Assembly (NCBI GenBank): GCA_001799195.1
Contig: MGSU01000093.1
Span: 1 to 11,973 of the forward strand
Direction: 5' to 3'
DNA: 11,973 nt
DNA from: Deltaproteobacteria bacterium RIFOXYA12_FULL_61_11
Lineage (GTDB): Bacteria; Bdellovibrionota_F; JAHFAK01; YA12-FULL-61-11
Positions 1 to 3,582 of the stretch are shown one piece after another (position 1 is the first letter of the stretch; each line of letters opens with the position of its first letter). Both the position numbers and the translations under genes were made by a program. The notes below the pieces were generated by a model. That model saw nothing but the letters and a program-made list of their open reading frames with translations. It ran no database searches and was not told the DNA's origin.

Positions 1-1693
1 TGCAAGCAGATTTGTCGGCATTCAGGATCTTCCCACTGGGGCAGCACCAGGTCGGCGTGCTGCCGGAGAGACATTGGGTACTGGCCGACCCCGTGGGCTT
101 CGCGTACTGATTGCAATAGAGCCCGCTCCCGCAGGGGGAGAGCGTCGGCGGATCGATACAGGCGGTCTTGGTGTCGTTGAGGAGCTTCCCGCTCGGGCAG
201 CACCAGTTGGCCACCCCGGCAGACAGACACTGCGTACTGGAGGCGCCGCTCGGTTTCGAGGCCGAGGTGGTGCAATACAGACCACCGCCGCAGTTTGCCA
301 GGGTCGGTGGGTCGACACAGGCGGTTTTGGCGTCGTTGAGGATCTTGCCGCTGTTGCAGCACCAACCAGGACTGCCCCGCCACAGGCACTGGTGGGTCTC
401 TCCGCTGGGCCGGGGTTCGGTGACGCAATACAGCCCCACCGCACAGGGGTCCAGGGTCGGAGCGACCGAGGGATCGATGCAGACGTTCTTCGCGTCGTTC
501 AGGACCTTGCCGGCCGGACAGCACCAGGCAGGGGTTCCATTCGACAGGCATTGTTGCTCGGCCGCTTCGCCCGGCCTGGTGGTGGGAGTACAATAGAGTC
601 CGGTACTACACGGTTGCATGGGCGGATCAATACAGGCGGTATGGGCCTCGTTCAACACCTTCCCAGGATCGCAGCACCAGCCTACCGCACCGCCGGTGGC
701 GTGTTGGCATTGGTGGGCAGGGCCGGTAGGCTGGGATTCTTGGCAGGAAAGCCCCCCGCCGCAGGTCGGCAGCGCGGGCGGAGCTTCGGGCGCGACGCAC
801 GAATTCCTGGCCGCGTTGAGGACTTTGTCGGCCGGGCAACACCACGTGTAGTCCCCGAGGATGTTGATGCACAGTTGGCCGTACCCACTGGGTATCTGGT
901 CGGGCGTACAGTACAGACCGTCTCCGGCGGGATGATTGTCACACAGGGGAAGGACCTCGGCGCCGAAACCGGGTTTGACGCAGGCGGTCTTGGCCTGGTT
1001 CAGGGTACGGTCGGTCGGGCAGCACCAGAACTCGGTCGGCCCGGCTCCCATGCAGTGGGTCCGCCATCCGCGGAGAGCGGATGAGGTGATGCATTCCAAA
1101 CCGGCTGGGCAGGCTTCCAGACCGCCACCGACAACGACCGGCACCTCGGGATTCGCGCAGCGCTTGGTTTTGTTGGTAAGGGTCGCTGCACAATCGAAGG
1201 CGGTGAAGCCCTCCTGGAAACAAGCCTGGCAAGCCCCCCTGGCCTCCTCGGAGGAGAGTTGCTGGTCGCACTGGGAGGGCGTGGTCAAGAAAGCCTCGGT
1301 ACAGGCGTCTTCGCGACACGAATACATCTGGGGCGTCCCGCCGAACATCATCTGGACGCCGATCCAGCCGAGCTCCAGAGTACCCGCGTCACTTGAGGCG
1401 AATTTCTTCCAGGGCCCACAGTCGCAGTACATGCTGGTAAGGGTCTCCCCTTCGAAGACCGTATAAAAGGTACCGCCGCTGTCCCAACAATTGGTGCAGA
1501 GCACCTTCTTGGCAGCTTCCTCCGCGGCCCAAGCGTCCGCGAGGCCATCGCACATGCTGCGCGGCAAGGGCTGGGCGTCCGCGAAACGCGGGACGAAGCT
1601 CGGCCCCGTGGAGGCTTGGTCCGAATCCAGGGTGATCCCTCGACACCCCAGCAGGGTCACGGCGCTCGCCAATGCGATCAGGTACGTCCTCAT
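1..1693 (-). CDS. Cys-rich tandem-repeat lipoprotein, 3' end off the left edge (partial)
   Basis: I do not recognise the family. Reading down from the ATG at 1693-1691 the frame stays open for 564 codons to the window edge, so the C-terminus is missing. The signal peptide is short and ends in lipobox LLGC with Cys17 as the predicted lipidated residue; the next residue is Arg, not Asp, which by the E. coli rule favours the outer membrane. Residues about 46-190 form a Cys-rich N-terminal domain shared with the gene upstream (PRSMCDGL, LGWIGV, YCDC). From residue 195 come seven repeats of 44-49 residues (195, 251, 311, 362, 417, 468, 521), each with six Cys in the order C-GLxC-C-WCC-C and ending near GKVLNDAKTAC. 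The start is supported by GGAGG (1702-1706) 8 nt upstream. It lies 59 bp after the stop of its paralogue, probably in one operon. The cysteines probably form disulfides in the periplasm or outside the cell (inference). Confidence 0.9.
   Translation of the reverse strand, partial: MRTYLIALASAVTLLGCRGITLDSDQASTGPSFVPRFADAQPLPRSMCDGLADAWAAEEAAKKVLCTNCWDSGGTFYTVFEGETLTSMYCDCGPWKKFASSDAGTLELGWIGVQMMFGGTPQMYSCREDACTEAFLTTPSQCDQQLSSEEARGACQACFQEGFTAFDCAATLTNKTKRCANPEVPVVVGGGLEACPAGLECITSSALRGWRTHCMGAGPTEFWCCPTDRTLNQAKTACVKPGFGAEVLPLCDNHPAGDGLYCTPDQIPSGYGQLCINILGDYTWCCPADKVLNAARNSCVAPEAPPALPTCGGGLSCQESQPTGPAHQCQHATGGAVGWCCDPGKVLNEAHTACIDPPMQPCSTGLYCTPTTRPGEAAEQQCLSNGTPAWCCPAGKVLNDAKNVCIDPSVAPTLDPCAVGLYCVTEPRPSGETHQCLWRGSPGWCCNSGKILNDAKTACVDPPTLANCGGGLYCTTSASKPSGASSTQCLSAGVANWCCPSGKLLNDTKTACIDPPTLSPCGSGLYCNQYAKPTGSASTQCLSGSTPTWCCPSGKILNADKSAC
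2..1111 (-). repeat. Seven tandem Cys-rich repeat units within the partial lipoprotein gene
   Basis: These are the DNA copies of residues 195-564. The best conserved core, repeated through the block, encodes WCCPSGK followed by LNDAKTAC and then a [DN]PP linker. Units 3-7 are more alike than units 1-2, which have longer linkers and match units 1-2 of the upstream paralogue. This suggests later duplication of the downstream units. The last unit is cut by the window edge, so the total copy number is unknown. Confidence 0.85.
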
Positions 1694-1752: not shown

Positions 1753-3582
1753 TCAGTTCGCCCAGGCAGGTTCCAACCCGGACCACTTCACGTTGTTGGG
1801 TTCGCGCCAATCGAGCCGGCAACAATGAACCCCATCGGCGAAATCGACGAACCCCAGCGAGAGGTTGATCGAGGCCGTGCCGCTCACGGGTTGGGCGTTG
1901 CAGTGCGACCTCGAGACGCCGCAGACGTTGAGCTGCATGCAGTTGCTGTGCGGGATGCTCGAGCACTTGGTCGGATCGTAGACCTGGGCGCTCGGTGGAT
2001 TGACACAGGCGGTCTTGGCATCGTTGAGGACCTTGCCCAGGTCGCAGCACCAGCCCGGGGTCCCAGCCCAAATGCACTGGTGCGCGGAACCGGTCGGCTG
2101 AGTGCGCACGCAATAGAGTCCATGGCCGCAGGCGACGAGTTCGTCGGTGTCGGCAGGAGGATTGATGCAAGCGTCCCGGGCATCATTGAGAACCTTGCCG
2201 CTCGGGCAGCAGTGGTATTCGGTACCCCAGGCCGCATCTTGGCAATGTCGGTCCCATCCCGTCGGCTGCCGTTGCGAGGTGCAGTGCAGCCCACTTGGGC
2301 AGGTCGGAAGGGTTTCGCCGCCACCAGGAGCCGGATCGGTGCAACGGAGGTTGGTGTTGTCCCAAGTCTTATTTGCACCACAGTTACAGGTCGAGTTGCT
2401 CCAGGTACCCGATGCGCGCAAACAATGAGTACACGTGTTACCGGTGGAAAAACCGATCGGGGGGGGGGGAGTCACTGAGGCGCAACTTGGATGAATGCAA
2501 CCCTGGCCGATCTCGAAGGTATAGGTCGCAGGGCAGGTGCAGGCGCGCCTCGGGGTGCGGGTCACGACGTAATCGGCAGTACCGCCGGTGCTGGAACAGC
2601 GGCTGGCGCAAGCTTGGTCGTCGACACAGGAGTGCGCCCCATCGGGCAGGGTGTCGACCGGCGCGGCCGGGTCGAGGCAGCGGGACTTGTCGTCCGAGAG
2701 GACCTTTCCCGCCGCACAGCACCACATGCCGTTCCCAACGAGGTTGATGCAGGTTTTCTCATACCCGGAGGGCCGGCGATCGCTGGTGCACTGGAGCCCA
2801 TCGCCGGCGGCGTCCTGATCGCACAAGGGTAAACCCTCGGCACCGATGTCCCGCAAGACGCAGGCGGTCTTGGCCGCGTTCAGCGTGCGGGTGGTCGGGC
2901 AACAATACTCATGTTCCCCGGCTCCCCCGAGACAGTGCGTGGCCCAACCGCGGAGCGCTGCCCCCTGGGTGCACTCGAGTCCCTGGGGACAAGGTTCGAG
3001 CTCGCCCGCCTGTTCTGCTGGGGGCGTCGTGAGGTCGAGACAGTGCTTGAGCTTGTTGGCCACGGAGAACGCGCAATCGAAATGTTTCCCGGCTTGCAGG
3101 CACTCCTGGCAGGCGGTCTTGGCTTCCTCTGCAACGAGCTCCTGGCACACCGCAGCCGTGGTCACGGTAGCAGTCGGGCAGACCTCGTCGCGGCAACCGC
3201 CGACCGTGGGATTTGCCCCGAAGAGGGAGGTGACCCCGATCCAACCCATTTCCAGATCGCTGTGCTCGTCCATGGCGAAGTGCTGCCAGGCAGGGCAGTC
3301 GCAGTAGACCGCTGCGAGCTCAGCGCCCTCGACCCGCTGGTACATGGTGCCGGCGCTCTCATAACAGTTGTTGCAGACCACGCGCCAGGCCCGCCCGATG
3401 TCGGTACCATCTTCCAAACCGTCACACATGTTGCGCGGCAGCACGGTATCGCCGGTACCGAAGCGCGGGGTCAAGCCGGGCGAAGACTCGTCCTCTCCCG
3501 CATTGATGGAAAGTCCGCAGGAAACCAGCCCCATGAGCGCACAAAGGGCGAACAGGGAGACAACCATATTGAAGTTCTTCAT
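1753..3582 (-). CDS. Cys-rich tandem-repeat lipoprotein (complete paralogue)
   Basis: 609 residues; family not recognised. I chose the ATG at 3582-3580 because it gives a clean lipoprotein signal (MKNFNMVVSLFALCALMG, then LVSC with Cys22). An in-frame ATG 33 codons earlier would put an unlikely charged stretch before it. The ribosome site is weak (GGGGGG 4 nt upstream). Residues 48-185 match the N-terminal domain of the downstream paralogue (MCDGL, YCDC, MGWIGV, CxxC pairs). Repeat units lie at about 198-242, 254-302, 428-476 and 485-530. Between the second and third units, residues 319-416 form a different Cys-rich segment absent from the paralogue, with two modules ending in TCxC/CNC and CxHP/CTDP. 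The C-terminal 79 residues are unique, with a CCRLDW motif near the end. An 11-C run lies at codons 372-375. Likely a surface or periplasmic disulfide-rich protein (inference). Confidence 0.9.
   Translation of the reverse strand: MKNFNMVVSLFALCALMGLVSCGLSINAGEDESSPGLTPRFGTGDTVLPRNMCDGLEDGTDIGRAWRVVCNNCYESAGTMYQRVEGAELAAVYCDCPAWQHFAMDEHSDLEMGWIGVTSLFGANPTVGGCRDEVCPTATVTTAAVCQELVAEEAKTACQECLQAGKHFDCAFSVANKLKHCLDLTTPPAEQAGELEPCPQGLECTQGAALRGWATHCLGGAGEHEYCCPTTRTLNAAKTACVLRDIGAEGLPLCDQDAAGDGLQCTSDRRPSGYEKTCINLVGNGMWCCAAGKVLSDDKSRCLDPAAPVDTLPDGAHSCVDDQACASRCSSTGGTADYVVTRTPRRACTCPATYTFEIGQGCIHPSCASVTPPPPIGFSTGNTCTHCLRASGTWSNSTCNCGANKTWDNTNLRCTDPAPGGGETLPTCPSGLHCTSQRQPTGWDRHCQDAAWGTEYHCCPSGKVLNDARDACINPPADTDELVACGHGLYCVRTQPTGSAHQCIWAGTPGWCCDLGKVLNDAKTACVNPPSAQVYDPTKCSSIPHSNCMQLNVCGVSRSHCNAQPVSGTASINLSLGFVDFADGVHCCRLDWREPNNVKWSGLEPAWAN
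1993..2991 (-). repeat. Four Cys-rich repeat units with an unrelated Cys-rich insert
   Basis: This encodes residues 198-530 of the complete lipoprotein. Units 1-2 (2677-2991) and units 3-4 (1993-2301) follow the same six-Cys pattern as the downstream gene. They are separated by an insert of about 98 residues of different Cys spacing. The final unit carries GKVLNDAKTAC, which is also found in the neighbour. Confidence 0.75.
2459..2469 (-). repeat. 11-bp homopolymer (C11 on the coding strand) inside the lipoprotein gene
   Basis: Eleven G on the plus strand, read as C on the coding strand, encode Pro372-Pro375. The frame is intact with 11. One extra C gives a stop (TAA) after seven more residues. 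One C fewer switches to another open frame that continues for about 190 codons to a stop near 1884. Runs this long in a coding region are typical of slipped-strand contingency loci; function here is inferred. Confidence 0.7.

What the first reader, a model, noticed from the sequence alone, without database searches (positions are those of the whole stretch)
2459..2469. Eleven-C tract inside a surface lipoprotein gene: possible phase-variation switch
The coding strand has C11 at codons 372-375 of 609. Seen directly: with 11 the gene is intact, with 12 it stops seven residues later, and with 10 it enters a different frame open for about 190 codons. Long poly-G/C runs in envelope genes are a known contingency mechanism (Neisseria, Campylobacter, Helicobacter), but I know of no well-established case in this kind of Cys-rich lipoprotein. 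The -1 product would keep the N-terminal domain and the first two repeats and gain a new C-terminus, so both off states could still export the conserved domain.
Basis: partly seen in the sequence, partly recalled or inferred. Interest (0 to 1): 0.62.

Follow-up and report, generated by a model that had tools for sequence, protein, structure and literature searches.

The report
Poly-C proline tract in lipoprotein gene
A run of eleven Cs really sits in frame inside a lipoprotein gene of an uncultured bacterium and would break the gene if its length slipped by one base, but nothing available shows that it does slip; it is most likely a slippage-prone stretch coding for prolines in an insertion-tolerant part of the protein, although such stretches are oddly concentrated in this genome's lipoprotein genes.

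Summary
The + strand has G11 at 2459-2469, which is C11 on the coding strand, codons 372-375 of a 609-codon Cys-rich lipoprotein gene. The frame consequences are as stated. The interpretation (phase-variation switch) is undecided and, I think, less likely than not.

Against a switch: C-run lengths in this 4.64-Mb draft genome fall off geometrically with no long tail (43, 15, 3, 2, 1 runs of 9-13; 9.3 C11 positions extrapolated from C6 and C9, 10 observed). No coding run of 9 or more that I examined shows an OFF, frame-broken gene. C9-C10 runs also lie in RuvB, a polyketide synthase and an acyl-CoA dehydrogenase. MutS and MutL homologues are present. The tract is 61% into the gene, and the paralogue lacks it.

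For a switch: among Pro-Pro-Pro segments, poly-C coding is strongly enriched in lipoprotein genes (12/23 versus 7/63, odds ratio 8.7, p=1.5e-4; weaker with stricter definitions). Pro-Pro segments and G, A or T runs show no such bias. Five of the six tracts of 11 or more lie in frame in envelope-type genes.

Length variation, the defining test, needs reads or strains that I could not obtain. No orthologue was found.

The parts
2459..2469 (-). C11 tract (G11 on +), codons 372-375, encodes Pro-Pro-Pro-Pro
1753..3582 (-). Cys-rich repeat lipoprotein gene, 609 aa; no Pfam family found
3517..3528 (-). lipobox L-V-S-C (residues 19-22) ending the signal peptide MKNFNMVVSLFALCALMGLVSC
   Evidence: direct reading; lipobox assignment is by motif only
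2438..2440 (-). stop reached if the tract gains one base (381-aa product)
   Evidence: ORF 2438-2725
1884..1886 (-). stop reached if the tract loses one base (565-aa product; 190 out-of-frame codons with non-coding codon usage)
   Evidence: ORF 1884-2381
2323..2661 (-). segment (about residues 308-420) around the tract, poorly alignable to the paralogue; no convincing second copy in the genome
2..1693 (-). adjacent tandem paralogue (47% identical over about 304 N-terminal residues, runs off the contig end), lacks the tract

Best explanation
The C11 is a slippage-prone stretch of CCC proline codons in a non-conserved, insertion-tolerant part of an envelope lipoprotein. Shown: the gene is in frame, the tract codes four prolines, and its length lies on the genome's ordinary geometric run-length curve. 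Inferred: the tract grew by occasional slippage because added or lost prolines there are tolerated; single-base slips do occur at an elevated but low rate and are simply loss-of-function mutations removed by selection; there is no dedicated ON/OFF switch. The bias of such tracts towards lipoproteins reflects where CCC proline runs can expand with little cost.
For: C-run positions per genome: C6 3097, C9 95, C11 10, C12 4, C13 1, a constant ratio of about 0.31 per base with no heavy tail. None of the coding runs of 9 or more shows a frame-broken gene: 41 runs lie in called genes, and the C13 and G11 runs missed by the gene caller were inspected. By comparison roughly half of nalP alleles in meningococci are OFF. 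Runs of 9-10 lie in RuvB (G10), a polyketide synthase (C10), a helix-turn-helix regulator (C10) and an acyl-CoA dehydrogenase (G9). 23 of the 64 runs were scored non-coding, at about 3.5 times the coding density in the 0.6-Mb sample, as expected where purging is weaker. The adjacent paralogue lacks the tract and no other copy of the segment was found. MutS and MutL homologues are present. In lipoproteins the tracts scatter along the gene, two in the last 10%, poor places for an OFF switch.
Against: Simple tolerance does not readily explain why only poly-C, and not G, A or T runs, is enriched in lipoprotein genes, nor why their Pro-Pro-Pro segments are poly-C coded while their Pro-Pro segments use codons as elsewhere. 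Against a second-order Markov model, the standard used for Bordetella, C11 positions are about 4.5-fold in excess. Five of the six longest tracts lie in frame in envelope-type genes.
Confidence: 0.62

Rival explanations
1. A true contingency locus: replication slippage at C11 reversibly switches the lipoprotein between full length (C11, C8, C14) and truncated forms, as one of a set of lipoprotein and envelope genes carrying poly-C tracts.
For: Position and frame logic are right. The tract exceeds the length of 9 used to call poly-G/C candidates and falls in the 6-15 range of nalP. Poly-C-coded PPP is enriched in lipoproteins: 12/23 versus 7/63, OR 8.7, p=1.5e-4; OR 5.8, p=0.003 and OR 5.6, p=0.02 with two other lipoprotein definitions. 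The six tracts of 11 or more are a C13 in an RmlD homologue, two C12 in lipoprotein genes, a G11 in a TonB-like gene, this C11, and one non-coding C11.
Against: No length variation seen or testable. No OFF allele in the examined coding tracts. No over-long tail, whereas Neisseria poly-G tracts reach 14-40 and Bordetella C/G tracts reach 35. The tract is 61% into the gene. No conservation of the tract in the paralogue.
Confidence: 0.25
2. Plain chance: a PPPP stretch happened to use CCC codons; the tract is stable and has no history of slippage.
For: CCC is about 40% of Pro codons; recoding the protein gives C11 or longer in 6% of draws; run counts fit low-order expectations within a few-fold.
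Against: PPP segments of lipoproteins use CCC far more than PP segments do, which codon usage alone does not predict.
Confidence: 0.09
3. A programmed frameshift or transcript slippage at the C run makes a second C-terminus from the 190-codon -1 frame.
For: The -1 frame is open for 190 codons.
Against: That frame has non-coding codon usage (-0.35 per codon) and an opening of this length arises in 4% of recodings.
Confidence: 0.02
4. The tract length in this draft assembly is wrong.
For: Homopolymers are error-prone, and the genome is a 342-contig draft.
Against: The assembled length keeps a 609-codon frame open, and every examined coding run of 9 or more is likewise in frame.
Confidence: 0.02

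Closest known systems
HpuA of Neisseria meningitidis (phase-variable lipoprotein, poly-G in the ORF; PMC3786947)
   Same: lipoprotein gene with an in-frame G/C homopolymer whose slippage truncates it
   Different: switching is documented in isolates there; unrelated protein; no variation evidence here
NalP/MspA of Neisseria meningitidis (poly-C in the ORF; PMC3723659)
   Same: poly-C tract of similar length in a surface-protein gene
   Different: lengths 6-15 with many OFF alleles there; only C11/ON known here
Bordetella homopolymeric tracts (PMC1891110)
   Same: GC-rich genome where C/G runs of 9 or more exceed a second-order Markov expectation, many in envelope genes
   Different: tracts there reach 35 bases and most vary between species; here the maximum is 13 and variation is untested

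Membership tests
Simple-sequence contingency (phase-variable) locus | homopolymer of 9 or more G/C in an ORF or promoter | tested here: met
   C11 in the ORF; cutoff from PMC5953494
Simple-sequence contingency (phase-variable) locus | single-unit slippage abolishes or changes the product | tested here: met
   381-aa and 565-aa products
Simple-sequence contingency (phase-variable) locus | tract length varies among cells or strains | not testable with these tools
   no reads; no second strain or orthologue found
Simple-sequence contingency (phase-variable) locus | tracts over-represented and over-long genome-wide | tested here: inconclusive
   no excess over the geometric tail; 4.5-fold over order-2 Markov, 2-fold over orders 3-4, below order 1; maximum length 13
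Simple-sequence contingency (phase-variable) locus | tracts concentrated in surface or envelope genes | tested here: met
   poly-C PPP enriched in lipoprotein genes; but runs also in RuvB, PKS and others
Simple-sequence contingency (phase-variable) locus | a share of loci caught in the OFF state in any one genome | tested here: not met
   no broken gene at the examined coding runs
Simple-sequence contingency (phase-variable) locus | tract conserved in position among homologues | tested here: inconclusive
   paralogue lacks it; no orthologues available

The most novel reading that the evidence does not exclude
This uncultured lineage carries a poly-C 'phasome' of roughly a dozen or more lipoprotein genes, plus O-antigen and TonB-type genes, in which slippage within Pro-coding linkers switches surface lipoproteins on and off, with the Cys-rich repeat lipoprotein as one member. 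That would be stochastic surface variation in a bacterium from a phylum with only two genomes in the collection searched.
Probability: 0.17. Interest if true: 0.6.

Novelty: new member of a known kind. Interest (0 to 1): 0.3.

Why it matters
If the tract switches, it would extend contingency loci, known mainly from host-adapted pathogens and commensals, to a poorly known bacterial lineage, and the genome-wide poly-C bias in lipoproteins would give a ready list of candidates. If it does not, it is a warning that long poly-C runs in GC-rich genomes follow from Pro codons in linkers and are weak evidence for phase variation on their own.

Tried and rejected
Orthologues: none in 59 and then 386 genomes, in the phylum (only two genomes held), in two scans of GTDB species genomes, or by flank pattern in viral contigs. 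Only the tandem paralogue and fragments in the same genome matched. Pfam and NCBIfam name no family for either lipoprotein. An OFF-state search flagged one run (L113); I also inspected other discordant runs (L050, L054). These proved to be adjacent intact genes or intergenic runs. Structure prediction failed (two-row alignment, mean pLDDT 36), so the linker position is inferred from sequence only. My first impression, that the run-length curve alone settles it as chance, was dropped when the lipoprotein enrichment appeared. One lipoprotein definition was loosened after seeing the list of runs, so I report three definitions, including the original and a stricter one.

Full report
Observation. 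The window carries G11 at 2459-2469 on the + strand. On the coding strand this is C11, starting exactly at codon 372 of the gene complement(1753..3582), and it encodes Pro372-Pro375 (VTPPPPIG). With 12 Cs the product ends 6 residues after the tract (381 aa). With 10 Cs it continues 190 codons in another frame (565 aa). The 190-codon frame is not a hidden gene: its codon usage is strongly non-coding, and an opening that long arises in 4% of synonymous recodings.

Setting. The gene encodes a 609-aa lipoprotein (signal peptide ending in the lipobox LVSC) with Cys-rich repeats of the type 'CxxGLxC...PxG...C...WCCPxGKVLNxAKxAC'. No Pfam or NCBIfam family matches. A tandem paralogue follows (2-1693, same strand, 47% identical over about 304 N-terminal residues, running off the contig end), and it lacks the tract. 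The segment around the tract (about residues 308-420) aligns poorly to the paralogue and has no convincing second copy in the genome. The window is contig C93 of a 4.64-Mb, 342-contig, 87%-complete draft genome whose phylum has only one other genome held. No orthologue was found in a search of 386 genomes or in two GTDB-wide scans.

Is the tract more than chance? In the window alone it is unusual: 7 of 200 shuffles contain one. In the genome it is not. Positions that start k consecutive Cs (either strand) number 3097 for k=6 and 95 for k=9. From the listed places there are 43 runs of 9, 15 of 10, 3 of 11, 2 of 12 and 1 of 13. The fall is geometric at 0.31 per base; from k=6 and 9 one predicts 9.3 positions at k=11 and 10 are seen. 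Against Markov models the k=11 count is below order 1 (15.4), about twice orders 3-4 (5.0-5.8) and 4.5 times order 2 (2.2). The order-2 criterion was used to nominate Bordetella tracts (PMC1891110), so a modest slippage-like excess exists, but not the very long tracts of established phase-variable genomes (14-40 in Neisseria, PMC5953494; up to 35 in Bordetella). The Markov parameters come from 0.88 Mb of sequence partly chosen around C9 runs, which has little effect at low orders.

Census of all 64 runs. I fetched the surroundings of every run of 9 or more and called genes by codon usage. 23 were scored non-coding, 25 are C and 16 are G on a coding strand. The scoring is approximate: two of the 23 (the C13 and one G11) turned out on inspection to be in frame in an RmlD homologue and a TonB-like gene. 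Runs of 9-10 also occur in RuvB (G10), a polyketide synthase (C10, named from its sequence, not searched), a helix-turn-helix regulator (C10) and an acyl-CoA dehydrogenase (G9). No run showed a gene whose frame is broken at the tract: the flagged case and the other discordant runs I inspected were two adjacent intact genes or intergenic runs. If such tracts switched freely, many should be caught OFF in one genome; roughly half of nalP alleles are OFF in meningococci (PMC3723659). A consensus assembly could hide minority OFF alleles, so this argues against balanced switching, not against rare switching.

The unexpected signal. Among Pro-Pro-Pro segments, poly-C coding is strongly enriched in lipoprotein genes: 12 of 23 segments in lipoproteins versus 7 of 63 elsewhere (OR 8.7, p=1.5e-4). 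With the original heuristic OR 5.8, p=0.003; with a strict lipobox OR 5.6, p=0.02, or p=0.06 without the focal gene. Pro-Pro segments show no such difference (OR about 1), and G, A and T runs are not enriched in lipoproteins. So neither proline content, nor codon usage, nor a general tolerance of homopolymers explains it fully. The six tracts of 11 or more are: C13 in an RmlD homologue, C12 at codons 3-6 just before the signal peptide of a lipoprotein gene, C12 in another lipoprotein linker, G11 in a TonB-like gene, this C11, and one non-coding C11.

Mechanism judged most likely (0.62): a slippage-prone CCC proline stretch in an insertion-tolerant part of an envelope protein, grown by tolerated changes in multiples of three, with one-base slips being ordinary deleterious mutations. 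Shown: in-frame tract, Pro coding, ordinary run-length curve, no OFF genes seen, MutS and MutL homologues present. Inferred: tolerance and slippage history; the structure model was too poor to help. The main rival (0.25) is a real contingency locus. What would separate them is tract-length counts in reads or strains, which I could not obtain.

Comparison with the known. It would work like the in-ORF tracts of HpuA, itself a lipoprotein (PMC3786947), and NalP/MspA. It meets the structural criteria (length, frame effect, gene class) but fails or leaves open the population criteria (OFF alleles, length variation, over-long tail), so I do not file it as a phase-variable locus. The novelty label 'new member of a known kind' refers to slippage-prone homopolymer tracts in coding sequence, not to a demonstrated switch.

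Noticed in passing
G000 genome-wide; L122, L125, L126, L078, L080, L084, L065, L056, L057, L114, L121: Pro-Pro-Pro segments in lipoprotein genes are preferentially coded by uninterrupted C runs of 9-12, unlike other genes and unlike Pro-Pro segments.
   Followed up: yes
L128:7496-7507 (G000:C68): C12 at codons 3-6 of a 392-aa lipoprotein gene, just upstream of the signal peptide; a better-placed candidate switch than the focal tract (5' end, or 5' UTR if a later start is used).
   Followed up: partly
L055:3258-3270 (G000:C248): C13, the longest C run found, in frame near the start of an RmlD (dTDP-rhamnose synthesis) homologue.
   Followed up: partly
L051:2676-2685: RuvB gene with an in-frame G10 run, a useful negative control for tract instability.
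   Followed up: partly
G058:C1:1356980-1357000: An uninterrupted C21 run in an unrelated single-contig genome met while comparing C-run counts; context not examined.
   Followed up: no
window 2-1693 and 1753-3582; L061 (G000:C128), L062 (G000:C2): Family of Cys-rich repeat lipoproteins (WCCPxGKVLNxAKxAC repeats) with no Pfam or NCBIfam match and no homologue found outside this genome.
   Followed up: partly
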